A stretch of DNA of 35,959 bases from Deltaproteobacteria bacterium (GTDB lineage: Bacteria > Desulfobacterota > Desulfuromonadia > Desulfuromonadales > JAAYDE01). The position numbers and the translations under genes are program-made. Location of the stretch: assembly GCA_016926265.1 (NCBI GenBank), contig JAFGOW010000183.1:1-35959 (forward strand), read 5' to 3'. Shown piece by piece: positions 5,852-25,184 of this stretch. The notes under the pieces were generated by a model. That model was not told where the DNA came from and did no database searches. It worked only from the letters and a program-made list of their open reading frames with translations. Position 1 is the stretch's first letter; every line of letters starts with the position of its first letter.

Positions 5852-7723
5852 CTACGGCTGCGCCGGCCTTTCACAGGTTATGTGATTGAACCCTTCACAT
5901 TTTTTATTGAAAGAAGGCCAGCCCGTATTGCATTCCGGATGGCCCGCGCCCATGTGAATCGTATTATTCAGACTTTCTGTTGCAAATGTAGAATTGTATT
6001 TCGCCCATTCAGAAATGGCCTTTTCATACTCCATCTCCTGACAAAATAAATCGGCGGCCCGCTGGGGAACCTCCGGCTCTCCTCTGTTCCCCTCGCGGAA
6101 GTTTACAAAGGTATCCACCCGCTTGCCGTTAAACATGGGCTTTTCGTAGCGTTTCCTTTCGGTTTGGGCGCACACGGTCAACCGTTCCCGGCGTTTGGCC
6201 ACCTCGGCCTGGATCTGGTCAGGACTGGCGGTAAGGCACCAATTATAATGAATCTTGAAATTGCCATGCCATCTTCCGGCTTCAAAAGCAATTGAAAGAT
6301 TGCAAAAACTGTTGGTGGCCTGGTGGTATTGCTGAACGGCGGTTTGCGCATAGTCCTGGCACATGCCTTCTTTCGTTTCAAGAGAGGCGAAATCTTTTTT
6401 CTTTATGCCTTTTGCCTTCAGAACCATTTGGGTCTGATCACTTTTTTGGGCCGTTTTTTTTAACATATTTTCATCCAAAACCGGCTTTCGGCAAATGATG
6501 TAATCAAAACCCCGACAATTGGAACGGGCGATGGTTGCGTCACAGTGGTGGTGATTGCCCAGGGGCATGGTGTTCTCTTGGGCCTTGTGGTCGGCTACCT
6601 TGAATTCCACCTCCTTCTCGTAGCCTTGAGAGATACAATAAGAGCGAGCAACTTCCGCAACGCCGCACGTCGACCCGAAATCATAATCGTAGACCTCACC
6701 CTCAATGGGGGTGCTGTGATAAGTCCGGGTCTCCCTGTACATGCAAAAATCGGCCAGCAACCCCAAATATCGGGGATTGTCAAAACGCTTGATCTCTCCG
6801 CAGGATATCAATGCCGCCCTGCGGTTGCCGCTCTCCATTTTCCGCTTGTCCTGGGTGGCGGACAGGCACCAGTTGAAATGCTTGTCAAAATCATTGTGCC
6901 AACGCCCTCCTTGAAATCCACACCGATTGTTTTCTGCCTGAATGAACTGGTTCACCGCGTCTTGAGCGTAATTCCGGCAAATGGCCTCGTCCGATATCTT
7001 CATCTTCTGTCCCGGCCTGGAAGAAACCTGCGGAACGATGGAAAAACCAGGTTTAGCCTCGGATTTCGCCCTGACCCCGGTAGGGGAATGTTCATTGATG
7101 GAAATGGGAATGGAGGGTTGGAGGTTGTGCCCGAACTGGTTTTCTCCCGATTTTGGACTGACCGACACATGCGGCGACCCGCCGTTATGGCCCGCGCCCA
7201 GAGGTCTGGCTTGGGACTTTTCAATGTTGAAGCGCAGCGTTTGTTGATTGTTTTTCTCGTTACTCTCCTGAACTCGGTTTTGGTAATCCGCCTCCACCGT
7301 AACGGAATACTCTCCGGCCACCCATCGGCCGCTGGCTGATTTGGGCCACTCCAGAAAGACCGTTTTCCCTCCAGGCAAATCGGGGATATTCAGAAATCCA
7401 TTGAGTTCTTTCGGGCACTGTTTCTGTTGACTGTTATTCAGGCCGCACTGCACTCGGATCCCACTCCCTCGGGCCATGCTCACGGAGGCGTTTTTGACCA
7501 TTATCCGAAAAAAAACCGGCGCTCCGATGTTCTCACCTTCTTTTGGAAAACCGCTGAGCTGGACCTTTTGCACAATGAGATCCGGGAGAATTTCAACGGC
7601 TTTTTTTTGGGTTCCCGCCGCGTCCTTCTGTTTCAAGGGAAAAGGAATTTCACCGTTTGCGTAGACAGCCGAAAATAAGGTCAACGCCAATCCCCAAAAG
7701 ACCATTTTTTGGATTCTCTTCAT
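5852..7723 (-). CDS. Secreted CARDB-domain protein with a duplicated Cys/Trp-rich C-terminal module
   Basis: Signal peptide; CARDB-like PDLIVQKVQLSG..VQESNEKNNQQTLRFNI; two copies of C-x2-YAQ-x-AV-x-Q...GRWH-x-F-x2-H-x-NWCL. Confidence 0.85.
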   Translation of the reverse strand: MKRIQKMVFWGLALTLFSAVYANGEIPFPLKQKDAAGTQKKAVEILPDLIVQKVQLSGFPKEGENIGAPVFFRIMVKNASVSMARGSGIRVQCGLNNSQQKQCPKELNGFLNIPDLPGGKTVFLEWPKSASGRWVAGEYSVTVEADYQNRVQESNEKNNQQTLRFNIEKSQARPLGAGHNGGSPHVSVSPKSGENQFGHNLQPSIPISINEHSPTGVRAKSEAKPGFSIVPQVSSRPGQKMKISDEAICRNYAQDAVNQFIQAENNRCGFQGGRWHNDFDKHFNWCLSATQDKRKMESGNRRAALISCGEIKRFDNPRYLGLLADFCMYRETRTYHSTPIEGEVYDYDFGSTCGVAEVARSYCISQGYEKEVEFKVADHKAQENTMPLGNHHHCDATIARSNCRGFDYIICRKPVLDENMLKKTAQKSDQTQMVLKAKGIKKKDFASLETKEGMCQDYAQTAVQQYHQATNSFCNLSIAFEAGRWHGNFKIHYNWCLTASPDQIQAEVAKRRERLTVCAQTERKRYEKPMFNGKRVDTFVNFREGNRGEPEVPQRAADLFCQEMEYEKAISEWAKYNSTFATESLNNTIHMGAGHPECNTGWPSFNKKCEGFNHITCERPAQP

Positions 7724-7862
7724 TTTTTTGGTTCCCTTCTTTTGGTTTTGAAAAATCGGGATCCTTATCTATAAAAACAGCGAAATTCCTTTACTGGAAC
7801 AGAAACGCCATCCATCAAGGTCGATTCGAGAGGTGCCAGTGGTTCTTCAGCAGAGCAGATTC

Positions 7863-7914
7863 CAGGGAAATTAGGGACGCTCCCCTATCAGGGAAATTAG
7901 GGACGCTCCCCTAT
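7863..7914. repeat. Perfect 26-bp tandem duplication CAGGGAAATTAGGGACGCTCCCCTAT x2
   Basis: Read directly: 7863-7888 and 7889-7914 identical. Confidence 0.95.
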
Positions 7915-7974
7915 AAAACCAATAAATTTTCAGGAATTTATCTGCTTTTGGGGGGTGATGTCTCTATTTTCCCC
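7889..7974. repeat. REP/MITE-like element copy B
   Basis: GGGAAATTAGGGACGCTCCCCTAT...GGGGGGTGATGTCTCTATTTTCCCC; same ends as copy A. Confidence 0.65.
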
Positions 7975-8820
7975 ACTGACATCGGGCAACGCGATTTTCG
8001 CTATCTCCGTTAATTCGTAGGCACGGGAATAGGGGATGATGGCGCCGGTGGCGCATTGTTGCCAGATCGGCTCCCGGTGGGAGGCGTCGTAAATCTTCTT
8101 GTTGGTCGGAAAAGTTTTGGCTACGGCGGCAATAATAGCCAATTCCACCTCGGTAAGCGAGGGTACGATACCGGTATCGGCAATGGCAATTTCATCCACC
8201 AGATCCCGGTAATTGTTGAGCTGCGGCCCCATGGGCAGGGCAGCGTAGGTGGCGCCGGTCAGGCCCCGGCCCAGATCCCTGAACGAGGCCATGTCGGCAT
8301 ACCAGAGATATTTGGCCGCATAGAGCATGCGGTCATCCTTCTTCAAAAGCGGGCGGCCCAGGTGCTTCTCGAAGGCGTCGAGAACCAAACGAATACGGGG
8401 AATTGAGAAATCTCGGTTCCCGGTGTGGTCATTACATGGGCTATCCACCAGCAGGGTGCGCAGCAGCGTGTCCATGGAGCGACTTTGAATGACGCCGGTC
8501 TCCCACCGTTTGATACTGGCGATCCCAACATTCAAGGCCTCGGCAAGGGCCTGCTGGGTCAAACCTTTCCGTTCCCGCAAACGGCGGATCTCCGCGCCGC
8601 TCAACAACCCCTCGGCCTGACGGTAGGCATCGGCCAGGCGTTCCTGGAGATCGGCGGTTCCTTCGACATCGGCCAATTCCAGGCCGCAGTCGGCGCAACG
8701 GTACAAACCGGCGACATATCGGACCTCCACTCCTTTGAATCGGGCCTGCTTCTCGGTTTCAACCCATTTCAAAGGGCCATGGCAATCCGGGCAGGTTTGA
8801 ATTGCTAACTGTTTTCCCAT
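7930..8820 (-). CDS. Antitoxin: N-terminal Cys4 zinc finger (MqsA/YgiT-like), HTH, C-terminal Panacea/SocA-like (DUF4065) domain
   Basis: CPDCHGPLKW...YRCADCGLELADVEG; LRERKGLTQQALAEALNVGIASIKRWETGVIQS; RIRLVLDAFEKHLGRPLLKKDDRMLYAAKYLWYADMASFRDLGRGLTGATYAALPMGP. Confidence 0.85.
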   Translation of the reverse strand: MGKQLAIQTCPDCHGPLKWVETEKQARFKGVEVRYVAGLYRCADCGLELADVEGTADLQERLADAYRQAEGLLSGAEIRRLRERKGLTQQALAEALNVGIASIKRWETGVIQSRSMDTLLRTLLVDSPCNDHTGNRDFSIPRIRLVLDAFEKHLGRPLLKKDDRMLYAAKYLWYADMASFRDLGRGLTGATYAALPMGPQLNNYRDLVDEIAIADTGIVPSLTEVELAIIAAVAKTFPTNKKIYDASHREPIWQQCATGAIIPYSRAYELTEIAKIALPDVSGENRDITPQKQINS

Positions 8821-8822
8821 AA

Positions 8823-9209
8823 TTAACTCCCCTGCTTGGCACCGCTCCGACAAGTATGCAAAGAAACAAGGTAAAAATATCCGTTTTTGAGAGAGAACTT
8901 GTAATAGACGGGGGCTTCGAATCGTGGACAGTGTACTGAAAAGGCCCATAACTCCAGATTCCGGATGCGCTTTTCATAGAATTGCTCCGGCGGCCGCCAG
9001 CCGACGTAATGATCCGGCCCGGTGTTATTCAAAAGCTCCAGCAAAACCATCTGCAATTCGTGTCGAATCGAGTAGCCGAGTTCCATGGCATCCAGGGCGA
9101 TAACCCCGGGCTCCACCACCCGGATGCGATTCCCATGCACGGCCTCCAGGGCAGCCAGTAATTTGGCGTTCAACTCCTTATGGCTCGGCCTCACCATCCA
9201 ATAGCTCAT
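8823..9209 (-). CDS. Candidate toxin partner of the Panacea-type antitoxin (possibly MqsR/RelE-fold)
   Basis: 128-aa ORF 2 nt upstream of the antitoxin start, same strand; C-terminus PVYYKFSLKNGYFYLVSLH is RelE/MqsR-like in style. Confidence 0.6.
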   Translation of the reverse strand: MSYWMVRPSHKELNAKLLAALEAVHGNRIRVVEPGVIALDAMELGYSIRHELQMVLLELLNNTGPDHYVGWRPPEQFYEKRIRNLELWAFSVHCPRFEAPVYYKFSLKNGYFYLVSLHTCRSGAKQGS

Positions 9210-9247
9210 TTCAAAAAACCGGGTCCACGAATCCGGACTTCGATTGG

Positions 9248-9276
9248 ATTATGGTATCATTTGATACTTTTGTCAA
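9248..9276 (-). promoter_or_regulatory. Sigma70-type promoter with operator palindrome for the TA module
   Basis: Minus strand TTGACA-17 bp-CATAAT; the spacer contains the perfect palindrome GTATCA-AA-TGATAC (9254-9267). Confidence 0.8.
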
Positions 9277-9353
9277 GACATTAAAACATCTAACACAGAG
9301 CCATAACTGAAGCCCATATCCCCTGGTTGTCAATGTTGCACCGCGAGGGGAAA

Positions 9354-9374
9354 AGGGGAGCGTCCCCTATAAAA
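9354..9374. repeat. REP-like half element copy C (GGGGAGCGTCCCCTATAAAA)
   Basis: Matches the left half of copies A/B with a compensated hairpin (GGGGA-GCG-TCCCC). Confidence 0.55.
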
Positions 9375-9377
9375 ACT

Positions 9378-10382
9378 TCAGCAGAGGAGATTCCAGATCT
9401 TCACCGAGTATTGGACCGGGGCGTGGTCGAGCAGCATCTCGACCAGCGGCGCTTCCTGGGGCCGCTCCCGGCCGATCACGACATCGAGCAGCCCCTTGAG
9501 CCCTTCCCCGGAACCGACCGTATCCCGCCAGGCCGCGGCGAACCGGTCGAGATCCCCCGTCATGGCTGCGGCGAGTTCCCTTCCAGCGAATGGCGGCACC
9601 AGGGCTCCGGCGGCGTCGAGGCGATATTCGGTTCCGAAATGGGTGTAGGAATATTTGACGAGCTTTTCCATCAGCTCGGCCGGCGGCAGCAGGGGAACCA
9701 GGTCGCGGTTGTTGACCCAGCGAAAGTGATTTACCGCCACGGAATCGTTAAAAGCCCGGTCTCCGACCCTGGGGCTGCCGAAGGTGTACAGGGCCGTGGC
9801 CTTGGGAAAAAGCGAAGCGCCGAGAGTGGCCAGGGCCGCGCCCAGGGAATGGCCGGTGAAGAAAAAACGCATGGCCGGGTCATCGGCGACCAGCCTTTCC
9901 AGATAGGCGCCCATGCCGTTTTTCCGGGTCCAGGTGTCAGCCGGGTCGGGGTCGTCGCAGCCGCCGCCCCAGATCTGAAAAATGCCGTCCCGGAACCCCT
10001 TGTGGACGTGGCCGCCCTGGAAGGCTTCCCGGGTGAAGCGGGCGTCGGTATAGAGGTCGAGGAGGCTGCGCAGGCTCTTGACCTCGGTGCCGCGGAACAC
10101 GACCAGGGCCAAACCCGGCCGGTGGGCGACGAAGGCTTCCGTGGACTTGTTGCCGAAAAAGCGGAACCCCGCAAACCCGAGGAGCCGGAAGACGTTGCGG
10201 ATCAGATTGGGCCGGTCGTAGGCGATATGGGCCGCCTCGGACAGCCACCACGAGGCCTCCAGCGAGAATTCCGCTCCGCAGCCGGGGAAGGGAACCAGGT
10301 CGGCGCCGAGGAAGTAATCATACTCCGCCATGGGCGGGAAGATGCGCCCAAGCCCCTCCGGGATCGATTTCGTCTTGCGCAT
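9378..10382 (-). CDS. Lipase class 3 family protein
   Basis: FFTGHSLGAALATLGASLFPKATALYTFGSPRVGDRAFND. Confidence 0.92.
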   Translation of the reverse strand: MRKTKSIPEGLGRIFPPMAEYDYFLGADLVPFPGCGAEFSLEASWWLSEAAHIAYDRPNLIRNVFRLLGFAGFRFFGNKSTEAFVAHRPGLALVVFRGTEVKSLRSLLDLYTDARFTREAFQGGHVHKGFRDGIFQIWGGGCDDPDPADTWTRKNGMGAYLERLVADDPAMRFFFTGHSLGAALATLGASLFPKATALYTFGSPRVGDRAFNDSVAVNHFRWVNNRDLVPLLPPAELMEKLVKYSYTHFGTEYRLDAAGALVPPFAGRELAAAMTGDLDRFAAAWRDTVGSGEGLKGLLDVVIGRERPQEAPLVEMLLDHAPVQYSVKIWNLLC

Positions 10383-10461: not shown

Positions 10462-11256
10462 TCAGTCGCTGGAACCACCGTTCGTGTCAAGGGCCGACTG
10501 CTGGCACCCGGGCCGGCCTTCGGCCCCTTCCGGCCCCTCCAGGGGCCCCACCAGTTTCTTAAAAAATTCCGGCGCTGGCGCTTCGAAGGTCAGCCGCTTG
10601 CCACTGAAGGGGTGGGGGAAGGAGATGGAGCGGGCGTGGAGCGCCAGGCGCGGCGCAAGATCGTCCTTTTTCCCGTACTTGGTGTCGCCCACGATGGGAT
10701 GCCCGATCTCGGTCATATGGACCCGGATCTGGTTTTTCCTGCCGGTCAGCAGGGTCACCTCCAGCAGGGAGAGGCCCCTTTTCACCTTCAGCAGCCGGTA
10801 ATCGGTCCGGGCCAGGCGGCCCTGGCCGTCTTCCGAAGTGGAAAAGACGAAATAGTCCGCATCCTCGGCCAGATGGGAGGTGATGGTGCCGCTCGGTTCG
10901 CAGACGCCGTGAACCACGGCCAGGTATTTCTTCTCGGTCCGGGGCCAGTTCGCCTTGAGGCGGTACATCGCCTCCTCGCTCTTGGCGAAAAGCAGCACCC
11001 CCGAGGTGTCCCGGTCCAGGCGATGGACGATGAACAGGCGCTTGCGGCTCTTGCCGCAGCCGGCGCGGAAGTATTCGGTCAGGATGGAGTGGACGGTGCG
11101 AGATTTCTCGTGCACCGTGGCCACGGTCAACAGGCCCGGAGGCTTGTCCACGACCAGGAGGTCCCGGTCCTCATAAAGGATCACCAGCCCGTAGGGAAGA
11201 CGCCGGAGGCCCCGGCTGAACGGCTTTTTCATAAAAGCGATGTGGATCTCCGCCAT
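10462..11256 (-). CDS. RluA family pseudouridine synthase (copy 1)
   Basis: FIVHRLDRDTSGVLLFAKS catalytic HRLDxxTSG; LLTGRKNQIRVHMTEIGHPIVGD. Confidence 0.95.
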   Translation of the reverse strand: MAEIHIAFMKKPFSRGLRRLPYGLVILYEDRDLLVVDKPPGLLTVATVHEKSRTVHSILTEYFRAGCGKSRKRLFIVHRLDRDTSGVLLFAKSEEAMYRLKANWPRTEKKYLAVVHGVCEPSGTITSHLAEDADYFVFSTSEDGQGRLARTDYRLLKVKRGLSLLEVTLLTGRKNQIRVHMTEIGHPIVGDTKYGKKDDLAPRLALHARSISFPHPFSGKRLTFEAPAPEFFKKLVGPLEGPEGAEGRPGCQQSALDTNGGSSD

Positions 11257-13548: not shown

Positions 13549-14742
13549 TTAATCCAAGCCGGGACAACACAGCTTTTCCAGCGCCCTTTGCAGCCAGGAG
13601 AAGCCGATCTTCTCCTGTTCCAGGCGCAGCCGGCACCCCAGGCGTCCGGCGCGCAGATCGTCGTAGAGGGTTTGCTCCTCCTCCGTCAGGCGCTTGAGGT
13701 CCCGGGTTTCAGGTTGCGGTTCCTTCCCCCAGCATAGGCGATGGGCCAGCAGGGTTTCCCGATCCATGAGAAAGGAGCGGGCGTTTGGGAAATAAGCCCG
13801 GAACTGGTCGAGGATGGCGAAACCGTGGGTATCGATATCCCCCCAGTAAAGGAGTTCCCGCTCTTGCAGCCAGGCCGCCGCGGCCAGGGTCTCGAAGCCG
13901 TAGCCGGCTCCGAACAGAACCATGCCCTGTTTTACGGGCGGAAAGGCGAGAAAATTGATCTCGTTTTCGGTGATAAAGACCCGGGTCGCCGCCGTTTCAA
14001 GGGCAGCGAACGTGTCGGCCGTGATCGTGATGTCCTGATCGGTGGCCGTGGGAAACAGGGCCAGGTCGGGGTCGAGCAGCCGCAACCGCACCCGTACCGG
14101 TTTGTCCCGGAACCCGTAGCGGCGGCAAAAGCCGCTGACCCCGCCGGCATCGGCGGCAACAGCCGCGGTGGGAAGCGTCAGATCGAAGAATTCGGCCAGA
14201 ACCCCCCGATGCCTTTCAATGAACTTGCTGTCCACGCCGGGGAGATCCACCTGTCGCAGGTAGATTCCGGGCCGCGGATGATGGCGCAGCCAGGTCACGA
14301 TAGTGATAAGGATCGTCCAATCGTCTGCCAGTTCCAAAGCCCGGAGCGGCCTCTTGACCAGCCAGGGGCGCAGCTCCGGGAGGCGTTTCGCGGTCGCTGC
14401 CAGCAAGTCAGAAAAACGCTCCGCCTGCCGGCGGCGGCCGATCATGGCCAGGGCATCTTCCAGGGAATCGACCCAGACTTCCGCGGGCACCGAATTGGCG
14501 CCGAGAACCCGGTGCTGGATGCGGCGCCACTCGATGCGGTAAAACTTGGCTCCCTCCTGGAGCATCGCGATCCAGTCGCGAACCTCGGAAAAGCGCTCCG
14601 AAAGTTCCTGGGAAGTCGGCCCTTTCAGGGTCAGACGGCGGGGGAACTCTTCTCCGTTTTCGGCCAAGGCCGCCAGCAGGATCCCGCGGTCATACCATTT
14701 CAACACCTGGGAGCGCAGCTCGGCCGGCGTCGTCCAGGTCAT
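13549..14742 (-). CDS. jetD: Wadjet JetD (DUF3322 + DUF2220, Toprim-like nuclease)
   Basis: [16 protein letters not shown] and [31 protein letters not shown]; 4-nt overlap with jetC. Confidence 0.95.
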
Positions 14743-17700
14743 GCCGTCTGCCTTTGCTTTTCGACCCGGTACTCCTCGATGGTCAGGTTGCGCAGCACCG
14801 AAGCGCGGCCGTCCTCGTTATGGACGAAGCCGACGGCGGAGACGAAAGGTTCGATGATGTGTATCTTCTGCAGGGGTGTGACAATGAGCAGTTGCAGGTT
14901 GAGCTGGGCGAAGAGCTGGAGACCATAGCGGGCCGAGTCGTCGGAGCCGCGGCCGAAGGCCTCGTCGATGACCACGAAGCGGAAGGAGCGCGACCGGACC
15001 GCCCCCCATTCGAGACCGAACTGATAGGCCAGGCTGGCGGCCAGCACGGTGTAGGCGAGTTTTTCCTTCTGCCCGCCCGACTTGCCGGCCGAATCGGCAT
15101 AATGCTCGTATTCGCTGTCGTCCTCGCGCCAGCGTTCGCTGGCCGCGAAGACGAACCAGTGGCGCACGTCCGTAACCTTGGCACTCCAGCGCCGGTCGAT
15201 CTCCGACTGCCCTTCCCGGCCCCGGAAACGCTCAATGATCCGCCGTACCTGGAGGAACTTCCCCTCGGAATAGTGGAACTCCTCGGACCCGGTCAGGGCG
15301 TCTTCCGTGCAGGCCCGCAAATCCGCCTGAAATTCACGGACCTCGGGGTCCGGAGCCGCCTGCGCCTCGAGGGCGATGTAGCGGCCGGGGTTGTAATCGA
15401 TCTGGGTCAGGGAATCGTTGATATGGCCGATCCGTTCCTTGATCGTCTCCCGCTCCCGGTTCAGTTGCGACTGGAAATTGGCCACCTCGCGGATCGTGTT
15501 CTCTTGGAGCAGCTCCTTGAAACGGGCCTCGAAGCGCGGCAGATCGTCGCCTTGCAACTGCTCCAGCAGCGCCTGGTAGTCCCCGGCCGCTTCCACGGCC
15601 ACATCCACCTCCTGGGTTTCCAGGGGATAGGAGGTGCTGAAGGAGCGCATGGCATCGATGATTTTGTCCTGCAGGCGGCGGATCTTGCCGTCCTCGGCAT
15701 CGATTTGGGTCTGGAGCCAATCCCGCATCTCCCGCTCGCGGTTTTCGCAGGATTCGACCGTCAGGGACGCTTCGCCCAGGGCCGCTTGCCGCAACACCGC
15801 CAGTCGTTCGAAATGCCGGTCGTGGCCCTGCCCCGCGGCCCCCAGCAAGGCGCGGGTCTGGTCACGCAGCTCTGCCGCGAAGGTTTTCTTCTCTTCGGTT
15901 CGGGAACGCCTGTCCTTGCGGTCGTCGAGTTGCTGTTCGGTCTCGGCCAGGGCTGTTTCCACCTCGGCGAGCCGGGCACCGAGCACCATGAGGGTGTTGG
16001 AGCCGGTTTCGAGTCGTTTCTTCTCTTCCTCAAGGCCGGCGATCTCCAAAACCAGAGGGCGCCAGTCGAGCTCCCGAAAATCGCGATACTCTTCCAGCTT
16101 GGAGAGGATGGCCAGCCGCTCCTGAAGAAGGCTCCGCTCCTGCTGCAGAGCGGCAATGCGGGCGCCGAGATCCCCCATATGCCTTTCCAGCTGGCGGCGC
16201 TGGCTTTCCAGGACGGCCAGCTTGGCGGCGTTGCTCCAGCCGAGAACGTAACGGCTGCGGTCGTTGAGGTCGTGGCGGTCATCCTTTTCGTGGCGCTCCC
16301 CCGGCATCTTGACCTGCCCGGCCCTGGTCAGGCCCCGGGCCTCCCGCCGGAACTGCTCCTGGGTGGCGCAGCAGGCCAGATCAAAACGCCGGGCGATCTC
16401 CCGTTCCAGCCAGTCGAAATAGGGGGAATCGGGTTTCAGGGCCAGCTTGCGGCCCAGCGAATCGGGAGAAATGGGGGTCGTCTCCTGCGGTTTTGCGCCC
16501 TCGCGCACACGGAAATAGACCAGCCGCCCTTTCAGCTGGGTGCGGTCCACCCACTCGGCCACGCGAGAGTAGTGAGAATCCGCAACCAGCAAGGACAGGC
16601 CGAAATTCCGCAACAGCCGCTCGATGGCCCCTTCCCACTCCCGTTCCTCCTCGCGCACCTGGATCAGCTCGCCGGCAAAGGGGAATTCTTCCTCCGCCAG
16701 GTCAAGGGCGCGGCACAGGGCGCGCCGCAGGGTGATCTGCTGTTCATCGATATTGCTGGCCCGGCGTTTGAGGCCGCTGATTTCGGCGGCCAGCCGGCCG
16801 TGCTCGGAACGCTTCTGAGCCAGAAAAACCCCGGCTTCGGTCATCTCGTTCTGGGCCGCGGCCTCTTTTTCAGCGGCCTCTTCCCGCAGAGTCCGCCAAT
16901 GCCGGCGTTGATCCAGGAAGGACTCTGCATCCTCGGCCGGATGGAGATCCAGAGCCCGGATCAGATCTCCGTAGTAACCGGCCTTGTGCCGGCGCCGCTC
17001 CTGCTCTTCCTCCTGACGGCGGATCGCCGCGGCCAGGGCGGCGATGCGGTCGCCCCCCTGTTCCGCGATGGTGTGGCGCAGTTCCAGCTCCTGCTCGCGC
17101 CGGGCCTGGCGCTGTTCTTCCAGGCGCTGGATGGCATTCTGATGCCGCTCCAGTTCCTCGCCCAGAGAGGCGAGACGTTTCTCCAGCAATTCCAGCTTGA
17201 AGCCGCAAAACCAGGGCTTCAGGGCTTCCCGGCAGGCGCGCAGTTCCGCGACGGCGCTGACAAGTTGCCCGTGGCGGTCGCAGTCGGCCACCAGGGGACC
17301 CAGCATCTCGATCTGGCGTTTGGCTTTCAAAACCGCTTCATAGGCGCGGTGAAGGTCGTCGTAATGCTTGATGAGAGCGGCGATGCGCGGCCCCACATCA
17401 AAGGGTTCGAGCATGTGGGTGCGGACAAAATCGGTGAGATTCCCAACGGATTTGAGGGACACGGTCTGGAGGAAGAGATCGAGGGCCTGCTCGTTATCGA
17501 TCCCGAAACGGCGGCGGAACCAGGAGCCGTAGGGGGGGAAACTGTCGAACAGGGCCACTCCCGCGTCCTTGAGCCGCTTGCGCAACGTGAGGATGTCGGC
17601 GCCGAATTGGGCGAAGTCGGCGCCGATGGTCAGGTCGCGCTCGCAGGCCGCATAGAACCGGGCCGGCTGCCCCTGAGCCTCCTTCGTCCAGAAGACCTGG

Positions 17701-18107
17701 GCCAGGGTCACGGTCTTGCCGTAGCCGGCGTTGTGAAAAACGCCGAGGAGCACCGAATAGCTGTTGTGGTCGCGCAACGCCACCGGCTTGGCGCTGCCGA
17801 GGGTTTCCTGGCGCTCTGATTTGTAGTATCCCAGGGTGTAGGAGCGCAGGCTCCGTTCCTTGGCGTCGGCCCCGGCCGCCTTGTTATAGGCGATGCGCTG
17901 GCTTGGCGCCAGCAGGGTAGTCAGAGCATCCACCAGGGTCGATTTCCCGGAACCGATATCCCCGGTCAGCAGAGCGTTACGGCCGTTAAGATGGAGGACC
18001 CACACCCGCCGGTCAAAGGTCCCCCAGTTGAGCACTTCCAGACGTTGCAAACGGAACCCGGCCAACCGGTCATCCGCCATGAATTCCAGCTCGAGGTTTT
18101 CAATCAT
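14739..18107 (-). CDS. jetC: Wadjet JetC, SMC/SbcC/MukB-like ATPase
   Basis: Walker [21 protein letters not shown]; signature [19 protein letters not shown]; Walker [14 protein letters not shown]; start chosen at ATG 18107, overlapping the jetB stop. Confidence 0.96.
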
Positions 18108-18729
18108 CTTCCCGCTCTCCAGGCTGCCCCAGCCGCTCCTGATAGGCGGCGAGCCGCTGATCCAGCTCGTTGAGCCACTGGGCATCGACGAACGCCTTGA
18201 GTATGCGACGCACTTCGAACATCTGCTCTTGACCCCGCAGGCGCCGGGCGAAACCGAGATCAACCACCTTGTTGAGATAGGCGTCAACCTGGTCGATCAA
18301 CCGGGTTTCGTTGCTCCCGGCGGGAAGGAAGACCCGAATCAGCTCGGCCACCTCGTCCCGGGAAAGGATCAGCCGCGTGCCGCCGCCCGCGGCGTCAAAC
18401 TCCGCCAGCTTCTTGCGCAGCAGCGCCAGCAGCAGACTGACCGGGAAGGAGAGCTGGCGCCGCGCCACCAGGCGCGGCACCCTGGCCGCCTCGTCACCGG
18501 CCTCCGGCCTGGAGCGCAGAAAAGCATACCCCTCGGCCTCGTCCAGGATCAGTTCCAGGCCGAGCACGGCCACGTAATCGCGCACCGCCGCCTGCAGATT
18601 CAGCAGGGAATTCCACAGTTCGGGGCTCTCCTCCAGGTAGACCACCCCTTTGAGCAGCGGCACCACCACGGCTGACAGATCGTGACCATCGCCTGGAACC
18701 CCGGGGGTTCCTTTATCCGGGATCGCCAT
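18100..18729 (-). CDS. jetB: Wadjet JetB (DUF4194, kleisin-associated KITE-like)
   Basis: Position between jetA and jet[46 protein letters not shown]; start 2 nt after the jetA stop. Confidence 0.93.
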
Positions 18730-18731
18730 CG

Positions 18732-20177
18732 TCACTCCCTCACGAAAACAATGCGCGGAATCCGGGCCGCGCGAACCGTGCCCTCCGCTGTTTGCCACTC
18801 CACCCGCTCCCGCTGCTCCTCGTCCACGGCCGAGCCGGGCCAGTCGCCGGCGACCTGCAGGTAGGCGATCAGCTCGGCCAGGCCGTGACGCAGGGGATGG
18901 CGAGCGATGACCTCGCCGAGGCCGATCCGGGAAGCCGCCTGCAACTCGCGACGAATATAACCGGCCAACTCCTCGCGATCAACCACCACTTGGGCGTAAA
19001 GCGCCGCCGTATCGATTTCGGCCTCCCCGACCTCCGGATCCAGATCGGCGATCAGCGGCTTCAGGGGCGGAGAATACAGGGGGCGTTCAAAGGGGAGCTC
19101 GATGGCGGCGCCGTTTTCGGCCAACGCCATGAAGTTTCCTCCGGGCAGTTCCTCGCGCACCGCCAGGGCGCGGCCCTCGATGTCGCGCAGGATATCCATG
19201 ATGCGGCGGTTTTCCAGCCACGCCTGGTCGTCGAGAAAGCGCCGCAACTGCCGGGAGAGCAGGGCCACGGTGCGCTGGGTGTGCTCGCCCGCTTCCAGCC
19301 AGTCGTAATGAATGCGCTGCAGCCGCGGCTCCGGATGCAGCTCCTGAACCGGCTTCAGATCCAGGATCTGCTCCAGGAGGCGGGTCAGTTCTTCTTGCCG
19401 GGTCGGGGACATGAGGAAATCCCAAAAGGCCCGGAAGCTCGTGCCCTCGTCGGAATCGGCGATGGCGTCCCGCTCCCCCATAATTTCTTCCAGCAGAGCG
19501 CCCTTGCCCCCCTCCCAGAGCGCGATACGCTCCCGCACCCGGCGGTCGAGGGTGCGGAAATTGCTTTCGACCGCGCGGAAATCGCTCAGCAGTTCCCGTG
19601 CCATTTGTAAGAATTGCTGAAAGCGGTCCTTGACCGCGGTTTCGTCCAGGAGCGGGAGATCGCCGTTGCGGATGCGACCGATCTCGGCGTCGATGGCCTC
19701 GCGGCGTTTCTGCAGCTCGGCGATCCGCACCCGGGGGTCGGTCTGGCTCCCTTCGCTCATCTGCCGCAACAGTTCGAACAGGGTCAGCAGCCGCGACTCG
19801 GTCCCCACGAAACGCCGCTCCCCCAGGCTGGCCAGCCAGGTCAGGGCCTTCTCCGTGGCCGGGGTCAGATCGAAATGGGGTTCGTCGGAACCGGCAGGAT
19901 AAAACTTCCGCAACCAGCCCTTGGCATTGTCGGCCCAGTCGTCAAGATAAGAGCGCCCCGAACGCGGGAAGGCCTCGGCCCCGTACTGCTCGCGCAGGGC
20001 GAAGAGCTCATCCTCCAAGGCCTCGGCCAGATCGGCCTGGGACATAATCCGGACATTGGGAGCGATAAAAACCCGGAACAGGAATCCCGCCACCAGCGAG
20101 GCGTGATCGGAGCGCAGCAGTTTCCAGGCGGGATGGTTCTGGCGCAGCAGCTCAAGGGTGGTGAAATCAAGGGGCAT
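18732..20177 (-). CDS. jetA: Wadjet JetA (DUF3375, kleisin-like)
   Basis: LDFTTLELLRQNHPAWKLLRSDHASLVAGFLFRVFI...SYLDDWADNAKGWLRKFY. Confidence 0.95.
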   Translation of the reverse strand: MPLDFTTLELLRQNHPAWKLLRSDHASLVAGFLFRVFIAPNVRIMSQADLAEALEDELFALREQYGAEAFPRSGRSYLDDWADNAKGWLRKFYPAGSDEPHFDLTPATEKALTWLASLGERRFVGTESRLLTLFELLRQMSEGSQTDPRVRIAELQKRREAIDAEIGRIRNGDLPLLDETAVKDRFQQFLQMARELLSDFRAVESNFRTLDRRVRERIALWEGGKGALLEEIMGERDAIADSDEGTSFRAFWDFLMSPTRQEELTRLLEQILDLKPVQELHPEPRLQRIHYDWLEAGEHTQRTVALLSRQLRRFLDDQAWLENRRIMDILRDIEGRALAVREELPGGNFMALAENGAAIELPFERPLYSPPLKPLIADLDPEVGEAEIDTAALYAQVVVDREELAGYIRRELQAASRIGLGEVIARHPLRHGLAELIAYLQVAGDWPGSAVDEEQRERVEWQTAEGTVRAARIPRIVFVRE

Positions 20178-21302: not shown

Positions 21303-21590
21303 AAGTTGCAACAGAAACGCCTGCCCAAGGGGGATGAAAAGAATCAGGAGGAAGAGGAGGGCATCGTCCTGCTCGATATCGTTTCCCAGCCGATGGCCAC
21401 CATGCAGAACACCATCGCCCGTTTGAAACTGGCCACCTACTCCCCGGATGTCGCCATTTCCATTTCCAAAGCCGCCTGCACCTTCCTCGATTTCCACCGC
21501 GCCGACGAAATGATCCGGCTCGGATACCATCAGGCCGGGGTAACCATGGAATCCTTTCTGGCGGAAAGCGGCGGCCAGCCAAATAAAAAT
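21303..21590 (+). pseudogene. C-terminal fragment of patatin-like phospholipase
   Basis: LQQKRLP...LLDIVSQPMATMQNTIARLKLATYSPDVAISISKAACTFLDFHRADEMIRLGYHQAGVTMESFLAESGG closely matches the C-terminus of the intact patatin at 24246-25184; in-frame TAG directly upstream. Confidence 0.85.
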
Positions 21591-21680: not shown

Positions 21681-22397
21681 TCACCCGTCGCCTTCCGGCC
21701 CCTCCAGGCTCCCCATTAATCTGCTGAAAAATTCCGGCGCTGGCGCTTCGAAGCTCAGCCGCCTGCCGCTGAAGGGGTGCGGGAAGGAGAGGAAGCGGGC
21801 GTGCAGCGCCATGCGCGGCTCAAGATCATCCTTTTTCCCGTATTTGGTGTCGCCGACAATGGGATGCCCGATCTCGGCCAGATGCACCCGGATCTGGTTT
21901 TTCCTTCCGGTCAGCAGAACCACCTCCAGCAGGGAGAGGTTTCTTTTCACCTTCAGCAGGCAGTAATCGGTCCGGGCCAGGCGACCCTGGCCATCTTCCG
22001 AAGTGGAAAAAACGAAATAGTCCTCGTCCTCGGCCAGACGGGAGGTGATGGTGCCGCTGGGCTCGCAGACGCCGTGGACCACGGCCAGATATTTCTTCTC
22101 GGTCTGGGGCCAGTTCGCCTTGAGGCGGTACATCGCCTCCTCGCTCTTGGCAAAAAGCAGCAGACCGGAGGTGTCCCGGTCCAGCCGATGGACGATGAAG
22201 AGGCGCTTGCGGCTCTTGCCGCAGCCGGCCCGGAAGTATTCGGTCAGAATGGAGTGGACGGTGCGCGATTTCTCGTGCACCGTGGCCACGGTCAGAAGCC
22301 CGGCGGGCTTGTCCACCACCATGAGCTCCCGGTCCTCGTAAAGGATCACCAGGCCGTGGGGAAGGCGCCGGAGGCCCCGGCTGAGCGGTTTTTTCAT
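21681..22397 (-). CDS. RluA family pseudouridine synthase (copy 2)
   Basis: Nearly identical to 10462-11256; start set at MKKPLSRGLRRL, where similarity between copies begins. Confidence 0.93.
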   Translation of the reverse strand: MKKPLSRGLRRLPHGLVILYEDRELMVVDKPAGLLTVATVHEKSRTVHSILTEYFRAGCGKSRKRLFIVHRLDRDTSGLLLFAKSEEAMYRLKANWPQTEKKYLAVVHGVCEPSGTITSRLAEDEDYFVFSTSEDGQGRLARTDYCLLKVKRNLSLLEVVLLTGRKNQIRVHLAEIGHPIVGDTKYGKKDDLEPRMALHARFLSFPHPFSGRRLSFEAPAPEFFSRLMGSLEGPEGDG

Positions 22398-24256: not shown

Positions 24257-25184
24257 AAAGAAGAAAAAAACCACCGTCTCCCTGGTACTCGGCAGCGGCG
24301 GCGCCCGCGGCTACGCCCACATCGGCATCATCCAGTGGCTGACCGAGCACGACTACGACATCCGCTCCATCGCCGGCTGCTCCATGGGCGCTTTGGTCGG
24401 CGGCATCTACGCGGCCGGGGAACTCGATTCCTATTCCCGGTGGGCGCGCGCCCTGGAACGCACGGACGTGCTGATGCTGCTCGATTTCAATCTCGGCGGT
24501 CTCGGTTTTTTCAAGGGGGAAAAGGTCATCGGGGCGCTGAAGAAACTGATCGGAGACCGCAATATCGAGGACCTTCCCATCTCCTTCACGGCGGTGGCCA
24601 CCGACATCCAGACCGAAAAGGAGGTCTGGCTCAGCAAGGGCCCGCTGTTCGACGCCATCCGCGCCTCCATCGCCATCCCCACCTTCTTCACCCCCTTCAA
24701 TTACCAGGGAAAGACCCTCTTCGACGGCGGCCTGCTCAACCCCATCCCCATCGCGCCGACGCTGCGGGACATGACCGACCTCACCATCGCGGTGAATCTG
24801 AGCGCCAAGGGGGAGGTTCCGGCTTTGGAACCGGAGCCGAGACCGGAGCCGCAAAACGCCTGGGAAAAATACCGGGCCGAGATTGTCGGGTTCGTGGAGG
24901 AACTGCAGCAGAAATGGCTCCCCCGGAACTCCCCCGAAGAGCAGGATGAGGAGATCGGCCTGCTCGATATCGTCTCCCAGTCGATGGACACCATGCAGAA
25001 CGCCATCGCCCGCTTCAAGCTCGCCACCTACTCCCCCGATGTCATCATCCCGGTTCCCAAGTGCGCCTGCACCTTCCTCGATTTCCACCGCGCCGACGAG
25101 CTGATCCGGCTCGGATACCATCAGGCCGGGGTGACTATGGAATCCTTTCTGGCGGAAAGCGGCGGCGGTAAATCAAAAAAATAA
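24246..25184 (+). CDS. Patatin-like phospholipase family protein
   Basis: LVLGSGGARGYAHIGII; GCSMGALVGG; LFDGGLLNPIPI (Ser-Asp dyad motifs). Confidence 0.95.
   Translation: MSAKKKKKTTVSLVLGSGGARGYAHIGIIQWLTEHDYDIRSIAGCSMGALVGGIYAAGELDSYSRWARALERTDVLMLLDFNLGGLGFFKGEKVIGALKKLIGDRNIEDLPISFTAVATDIQTEKEVWLSKGPLFDAIRASIAIPTFFTPFNYQGKTLFDGGLLNPIPIAPTLRDMTDLTIAVNLSAKGEVPALEPEPRPEPQNAWEKYRAEIVGFVEELQQKWLPRNSPEEQDEEIGLLDIVSQSMDTMQNAIARFKLATYSPDVIIPVPKCACTFLDFHRADELIRLGYHQAGVTMESFLAESGGGKSKK

What the first reader, a model, noticed from the sequence alone, without database searches (positions are those of the whole stretch)
7930..9276. Candidate TA module: zinc-finger/HTH/Panacea-like antitoxin with unrecognised 128-aa toxin
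The downstream gene combines an MqsA-like Cys4 finger, an HTH and a C-terminal domain of Panacea/SocA type, a domain known from hyperpromiscuous antitoxins paired with diverse toxins. The upstream 128-aa ORF, 2 nt away, is the expected toxin. I do not recognise its family; its C-terminal beta-strands (PVYYKFSLKNGYFYLVSLH) only suggest an MqsR/RelE fold. It could be a new toxin family.
Basis: partly seen in the sequence, partly recalled or inferred. Interest (0 to 1): 0.75.

Follow-up and report, generated by a model that had tools for sequence, protein, structure and literature searches.

The report
Divergent MqsR-like toxin with Panacea antitoxin
This is a two-gene bacterial poison-and-antidote unit whose poison is a distant, previously unlabelled relative of the RNA-cutting toxin MqsR with an altered set of active-site residues, controlled by a DNA switch sequence that is almost unchanged across several bacterial phyla.

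Summary
On the minus strand, a 128-aa ORF (8823-9209) lies 2 nt before a 296-aa MqsA-type zinc-finger/HTH/SocA-Panacea antitoxin (7930-8820). The small protein matches nothing in Pfam, NCBIfam, PADLOC or PHROGs. It nevertheless belongs to a real family: 16 of 391 relatives, and 67 loci in a species-level genome scan (Desulfobacterota, environmental Chlamydiae, Verrucomicrobia and others). In 64 of the 67, an MqsA-type antitoxin gene follows directly; the exceptions are one contig end and two decayed copies. An AlphaFold model (pLDDT 84) finds E. coli MqsR as its best match among all solved structures. Profile comparison agrees (0 of 200 shuffles), and bridging sequences connect the two. So it is a very divergent MqsR-superfamily toxin, not a new fold. 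Of the four residues needed for E. coli MqsR toxicity only Tyr81 is kept; Lys96 is replaced by a near-invariant histidine. A 14-bp palindrome, GTATCAnnTGATAC, lies in the promoter spacer here and upstream of the toxin in 61 of 68 loci, never elsewhere in 462 kb. The closest studied system is Bacillus fungorum MqsR:PanA. Likely mechanism: autoregulated type II toxin-antitoxin; the zinc domain neutralises, HTH represses, Panacea senses. Toxicity and RNA cleavage are untested.

The parts
8823..9209 (-). toxin gene, 128 aa, divergent MqsR-fold protein; homologues begin at the fifth residue (MVRPSHKEL)
7930..8820 (-). antitoxin gene, 296 aa: MqsA-type zinc-binding domain, HTH and Panacea domain
8611..8799 (-). 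zinc-binding domain of the antitoxin (residues about 8-70; Cys10, Cys13, Cys42, Cys45), inferred neutralising element
   Evidence: by analogy PMC10440598 and PMC2791442
8449..8598 (-). helix-turn-helix domain of the antitoxin (residues about 75-124), inferred DNA-binding autorepressor
7981..8403 (-). C-terminal SocA/Panacea region (residues about 140-280; Pfam match 170-254)
9248..9276 (-). sigma-70 type promoter TTGACA-17-CATAAT upstream of the toxin (11 of 12 consensus bases; the scan finds one such site where 1.2 are expected by chance, so the support is its position around the conserved operator)
9254..9267 (.). operator palindrome GTATCAnnTGATAC inside the promoter spacer; only copy in the genome
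7863..7920 (+). tandem 26-nt repeat with GGGACGCTCCCCTAT, at the downstream edge of the segment shared with the sister species
9345..9396 (+). related repeat plus a 21-nt direct repeat (20 of 21 identical to 7845-7865) at the other edge of the shared segment

Best explanation
The pair is a chromosomal type II toxin-antitoxin module of the mqsRA kind, toxin gene first. The 128-aa protein is a very divergent MqsR-fold toxin that most likely stops growth by cutting RNA; its active site is remodelled (Tyr102 and Lys104 kept, a histidine, His118, in place of MqsR Lys96, no counterpart of Lys56 and Gln68). The 296-aa protein is its antitoxin. The zinc-binding domain binds and blocks the toxin. The HTH dimer represses the shared promoter by binding GTATCAnnTGATAC between the -35 and -10 boxes. 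Panacea is an accessory, probably sensory or stability-setting, domain that releases the toxin on an unknown cue. Shown here: the family, adjacency, fold, residue swaps, and operator and promoter conservation. Inferred: toxicity, RNA cleavage, zinc-domain neutralisation, repression, and the role of Panacea.
For: Homologues in 16 of 391 relatives, 13 genera, and 67 loci found with a toxin-only query. In 64 of 67 an antitoxin homologue starts directly downstream; the gap is at most 27 nt, median 0, in 53 measured. The exceptions are a contig end (L051), a toxin broken after about residue 99 with no antitoxin (L081), and a pair of remnants (L113). 57 of 60 antitoxins carry Panacea and 58 of 60 the Pfam MqsA domain. 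Toxin model pLDDT 84, pTM 0.79; the two best of 350,542 PDB chains are MqsR, 3hi2, probability 1.00, TM 0.71 over MqsR. hhalign against MqsR gives P=7e-5, and 0 of 200 column shuffles reach the score. Family member L106 matches Pfam MqsR_toxin at E=0.013; bridging toxins L044 and L117, which also end in S-F-H and sit by MqsA-type antitoxins, match at 2e-4. The antitoxin model matches MqsA 3gn5. Operator in 61 of 68 loci, 0 elsewhere in 462 kb, none in 30 MqsR loci, once in this genome. The module stays 88% identical in DNA in the sister species, dN/dS 0.17 and 0.10.
Against: No functional data. The Foldseek E-value is marginal (4.5e-3) and no sequence profile match reaches a curated cut-off. 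Three of the four residues needed for E. coli MqsR toxicity (PMC2791442) are not conserved, so RNA cleavage is not assured; the fold could now serve another target. No toxin-antitoxin complex model could be made with these tools.
Confidence: 0.8

Rival explanations
1. A toxin-antitoxin pair whose toxin keeps the MqsR fold but has a different biochemical activity or target (for example tRNA or rRNA cleavage with a His-Glu site, or no nuclease activity at all).
For: Lys56, Gln68 and Lys96 of MqsR are replaced, while Glu79, His118 and the GxxPPxxSYE loop are near-invariant. In YoeB and RNase Sa a His-Glu pair is catalytic (PMC2791442).
Against: Tyr81 and the Tyr-x-Lys strand are kept in all aligned sequences, and in the related B. 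fungorum MqsR the equivalent tyrosine is needed for toxicity (PMC10440598). The GxxPPxxSYE conservation in the 67-locus set is inflated by the search pattern.
Confidence: 0.3
2. Antitoxin neutralises mainly through the Panacea domain, as in hyperpromiscuous PanA antitoxins without extra domains.
For: Panacea is present in 57 of 60 antitoxins of this family, and isolated Panacea can neutralise other toxins (PMC8832971).
Against: L016, L058, L062 and L114 pair the same toxin with antitoxins that show no Panacea match. In B. fungorum the zinc domain is sufficient and Panacea is not (PMC10440598).
Confidence: 0.1
3. Not a toxin-antitoxin system: a regulator with a small co-regulated partner protein of housekeeping or other function.
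For: Toxicity has not been tested; the module is patchy but can be retained between species.
Against: MqsR fold, MqsA-type partner, tight coupling and overlap, loss of the partner only in decayed copies, patchy distribution across phyla.
Confidence: 0.07

Closest known systems
Bacillus fungorum MqsR(D2):PanA (Ernits et al. 2023, PMC10440598)
   Same: Zinc domain-HTH-Panacea antitoxin paired with an MqsR-fold toxin with an essential tyrosine.
   Different: The paper treats that toxin as MqsR. Here the toxin is outside the Pfam and NCBIfam MqsR models and has a rewired active site. Direct sequence comparison with the B. fungorum toxin was not possible.
E. coli MqsRA (PMC2791442)
   Same: Toxin gene first, same predicted toxin fold, four-Cys zinc domain plus HTH in the antitoxin, Tyr81 and the following Y-x-K strand.
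   Different: About 11% identity over the structural match; Lys56, Gln68 and Lys96 not kept; operator GTATCAnnTGATAC instead of the AACCT-type mqsRA palindrome (the latter from general knowledge); antitoxin carries Panacea.
PanAT systems in general (Kurata et al. 2022, PMC8832971)
   Same: Panacea-domain antitoxin next to a small toxin; MqsR-like toxins are among the listed partners, and many partner clusters were unannotated.
   Different: This toxin-first family could be one of the unannotated clusters; the supplementary cluster list could not be read here.

Membership tests
MqsR toxin family (PF15723) | Match to the curated profile above its cut-off | tested here: not met
   No match for the window protein at E<=10; best family member L106 E=0.013, 16.4 bits against a cut-off of 26.2
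MqsR toxin family (PF15723) | MqsR three-dimensional fold | tested here: met
   AlphaFold model; top two PDB matches are MqsR 3hi2, probability 1.00, TM 0.68-0.71 over MqsR
MqsR toxin family (PF15723) | Toxicity residues Lys56, Gln68, Tyr81, Lys96 | tested here: not met
   Only Tyr81 (Tyr102) kept; Lys96 replaced by His118 (residues)
MqsR toxin family (PF15723) | RNase activity arresting growth | not testable with these tools
   needs expression and cleavage assays
MqsA antitoxin family | CxxC...CxxC zinc domain followed by HTH | tested here: met
   TIGR03830 E=2.5e-24 above cut-off; Cys10, Cys13, Cys42, Cys45; model matches 3gn5. Many relatives have C-x3-H in place of the first CxxC.
Panacea (PanA) antitoxins | SocA_Panacea domain above cut-off next to a small toxin gene | tested here: met
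   PF13274 33.3 bits, cut-off 25.7; 57 of 60 family antitoxins match
Type II toxin-antitoxin systems | Conserved two-gene adjacency with tight coupling | tested here: met
   64 of 67 loci; median gap 0
Type II toxin-antitoxin systems | Autoregulatory operator in the operon promoter | tested here: met
   Palindrome upstream of the toxin in 61 of 68 loci, in the window between TTGACA and CATAAT; DNA binding itself not tested
Type II toxin-antitoxin systems | Toxicity and neutralisation by the partner protein | not testable with these tools
   needs co-expression assay

The most novel reading that the evidence does not exclude
An unrecognised, multi-phylum branch of the MqsR superfamily has exchanged MqsR's lysine-based active site for a histidine-containing one (His118, perhaps with Glu79), so that it cleaves RNA by different chemistry or hits a different target. 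With its Panacea-bearing antitoxin it may serve as a phage-triggered second line inside restriction and other defence islands.
Probability: 0.35. Interest if true: 0.65.

Novelty: new variant of a known kind. Interest (0 to 1): 0.52.

Why it matters
It gives a name and fold to a toxin family that current annotation leaves blank in dozens of genomes. It shows how far the MqsR fold can drift while keeping its antitoxin type. It also supplies a conserved operator by which more members can be found. Antitoxins that have lost Panacea while pairing with the same toxin make the open question of what Panacea does directly testable.

Tried and rejected
Sequence search of the toxin against PDB sequences gave only chance matches, such as C-reactive protein at E=0.1-0.2. 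tblastn found no copies on plasmids or in deposited phages. Four scans of IMG/VR viral contigs failed because the search machine gave no answer, so phage carriage is not excluded. BFVD gave no clear viral relative. Viewing the toxin as RelE, HigB or YafQ-like was rejected: those structures appear lower in the PDB list, with lower scores than MqsR. Nearly all Panacea proteins found in relatives by profile without an MqsA-type domain lack this toxin nearby. Plasmid MqsA relatives match only the zinc-HTH part. Kurata et al.'s toxin cluster list is in a supplement that could not be opened, so prior listing of this family as an unnamed PanT cluster is not excluded.

Full report
What is there. On the minus strand of the window a 128-aa ORF (8823-9209) is followed after 2 nt by a 296-aa ORF (7930-8820). 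The second protein is an MqsA-type zinc-finger plus HTH protein (TIGR03830, E=2.5e-24, above its cut-off) with a C-terminal SocA/Panacea domain (PF13274, E=1e-7, above its cut-off). The first has no match in Pfam, NCBIfam, PADLOC or PHROGs at E<=10.

A real and conserved pair. A search of 391 whole genomes of relatives found the small protein in 16 (13 genera). A scan of one genome per species with the toxin alignment alone found 67 loci, mostly Desulfobacterota and environmental Chlamydiae, with a few from Verrucomicrobia (including Opitutales), Pseudobdellovibrio and Patescibacteria. Although the antitoxin was not part of the query, 64 of the 67 have an antitoxin homologue directly downstream. 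In 53 measured pairs the gap is at most 27 nt with median 0, and many genes overlap by 4 nt. The three exceptions are a contig that ends behind the toxin (L051), a toxin broken after about residue 99 that has lost its partner (L081), and a pair of remnants (L113). An intact toxin without antitoxin was not seen. Against the sister species the toxin has dN/dS 0.17 and the antitoxin 0.10.

What the toxin is. AlphaFold2 with 15 homologues gives pLDDT 84, pTM 0.79 and the order H-E-H-H-E-E-E-E. Foldseek against all solved structures puts the two MqsR chains of 3hi2 first (E 4.5e-3 and 1.2e-2, probability 1.00, TM 0.71 and 0.68 over MqsR); RelE-like toxins such as HP0894 and YafQ follow with lower scores. 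Independently, hhalign of 66 toxin sequences against 22 MqsR sequences from the same phylum gives P=7e-5 (score 30.5). The reversed profile gives 16.7 and the best of 200 column shuffles 20.0. There are bridges. Family member L106 matches Pfam MqsR_toxin at E=0.013 over its C-terminal strands. A third group (L044, L117) matches it at 2e-4, shares the S-F-H ending with the window family and also sits by MqsA-type antitoxins. I conclude that it is a very divergent MqsR-superfamily member; no single sequence test reaches a curated threshold, but fold, profile and context agree.

Active site. In E. coli MqsR, changes at Lys56, Gln68, Tyr81 and Lys96 abolish or reduce toxicity (PMC2791442). In the joint alignment Tyr81 is Tyr102 and the following Lys is Lys104, both invariant across all aligned toxins. 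Lys96 is replaced by His118 (65 of 66), Gln68 by Ala89, and Lys56 has no basic counterpart. The loop GxxPPxxSYE is specific to the family; its invariance in the 67-locus set is inflated because the scan used it as pattern, but the 15 sequences from the unbiased search also have the G, both P and the Y invariant and S and E nearly so. The window protein itself has Phe77 where 65 of 66 have Ser. A histidine at this place recalls the His-Glu pair of YoeB and RNase Sa; that is inference.

Regulation. The operon promoter in the window is TTGACA-17-CATAAT. The promoter scan alone is not above chance (1 found, 1.2 expected). What stands out is that its spacer contains the palindrome GTATCAAATGATAC, the only such site in the genome. 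The motif G[TC]A[TC]CAnnTG[AG]T[AG]C lies upstream of the toxin in 61 of 68 loci and nowhere else in 461,871 bases; four of the other loci have it with one or two mismatches, two are decayed, and one (L062) lacks it. It survives in Chlamydiae and Verrucomicrobia. It is absent from 30 MqsR loci of the same phylum. In many Desulfobacterales the -10 box directly abuts the annotated ATG, so the transcript may be leaderless; not followed up. An HTH antitoxin repressing its own promoter is the simplest explanation.

Antitoxin roles. The antitoxin model (pLDDT 90.5) finds E. coli MqsA 3gn5 first. 57 of 60 family antitoxins have Panacea, but L016, L058, L062 and L114 do not match it; L058 carries a second HTH instead. 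In B. fungorum MqsR:PanA, which has the same domain order, the zinc domain neutralises alone while Panacea does not, and Panacea is proposed to be a sensor (PMC10440598). The natural Panacea-less versions fit this.

Surroundings. The module lies in a variable region. Against the sister species, window 23.6-36 kb is collinear (with gaps) with the sister contig. There the module (88% identical over window 7992-9334) follows that block at once, next to a type III methyltransferase. In the window, about 14 kb with a Wadjet system (13549-20177), a SWIM-domain protein, a lipase and two related pseudouridine synthases lies between. The edges of the shared segment coincide with short repeats. Of 16 other loci inspected, about half have restriction, AbiEii or other PADLOC-matching neighbours within about 3 kb; the proteins tested were picked by eye and there is no background rate, so this is only suggestive of defence islands.

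What is known and what is new. MqsR toxins paired with zinc-HTH-Panacea antitoxins are known (PMC8832971, PMC10440598). New here, as far as the held literature and libraries show, are the recognition of this unlabelled toxin family as divergent MqsR, its exchanged active-site residues, its multi-phylum range, and its conserved operator. Whether it equals one of the unannotated PanT clusters of Kurata et al. could not be checked.

Noticed in passing
window 13549-20177 (-): Complete Wadjet-type defence system: DUF3375 (JetA), DUF4194 (JetB), SbcC-like SMC (JetC), JetD (DUF3322 plus JetD_C).
   Followed up: partly
window 10526-11232 and 21691-22397: Two pseudouridine synthase genes, 90% identical over 707 nt and in the same orientation, flank the SWIM-protein and Wadjet segment, as if the island had been inserted or duplicated between them.
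   Followed up: partly
window 21346-21575 and 24940-25166: A 230-nt copy (87% identical) of the 3' part of the patatin-like gene lies near the island edge, another sign of a duplication-linked insertion.
   Followed up: no
window 7845-7920 and 9345-9396: Short repeats (21-nt direct repeat and GGGACGCTCCCCTATAAAA-type units) bound the segment conserved in the sister species; a pattern scan with up to one mismatch finds the TTAGGGACGCTCCCC form only at the left edge in the whole genome.
   Followed up: partly
L052, L054, L057, L072, L073 and others, toxin start: The -10 box of the operator-containing promoter directly abuts the toxin ATG, suggesting leaderless toxin mRNA or a later start codon.
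   Followed up: no
L044, L116, L117: A third MqsR-like toxin group ending in S-F-H, next to zinc-HTH or zinc-HTH-Panacea antitoxins; in L044 TTATCAATTGATAA sites lie in and near the promoter.
   Followed up: partly
antitoxins of many Desulfobacterota loci, for example L052-L061: First zinc-ligand pair is C-x3-H (CPKGHG) instead of CxxC; the window protein has CPDCH with both.
   Followed up: no
window 5852-7723 (-): 623-aa predicted secreted CARDB protein with two internal Cys-rich repeats of about 150 aa (CxxYAQxAVxQ... GRWH... NWCL), otherwise unassigned and not found in 28 related genomes by DNA search.
   Followed up: no
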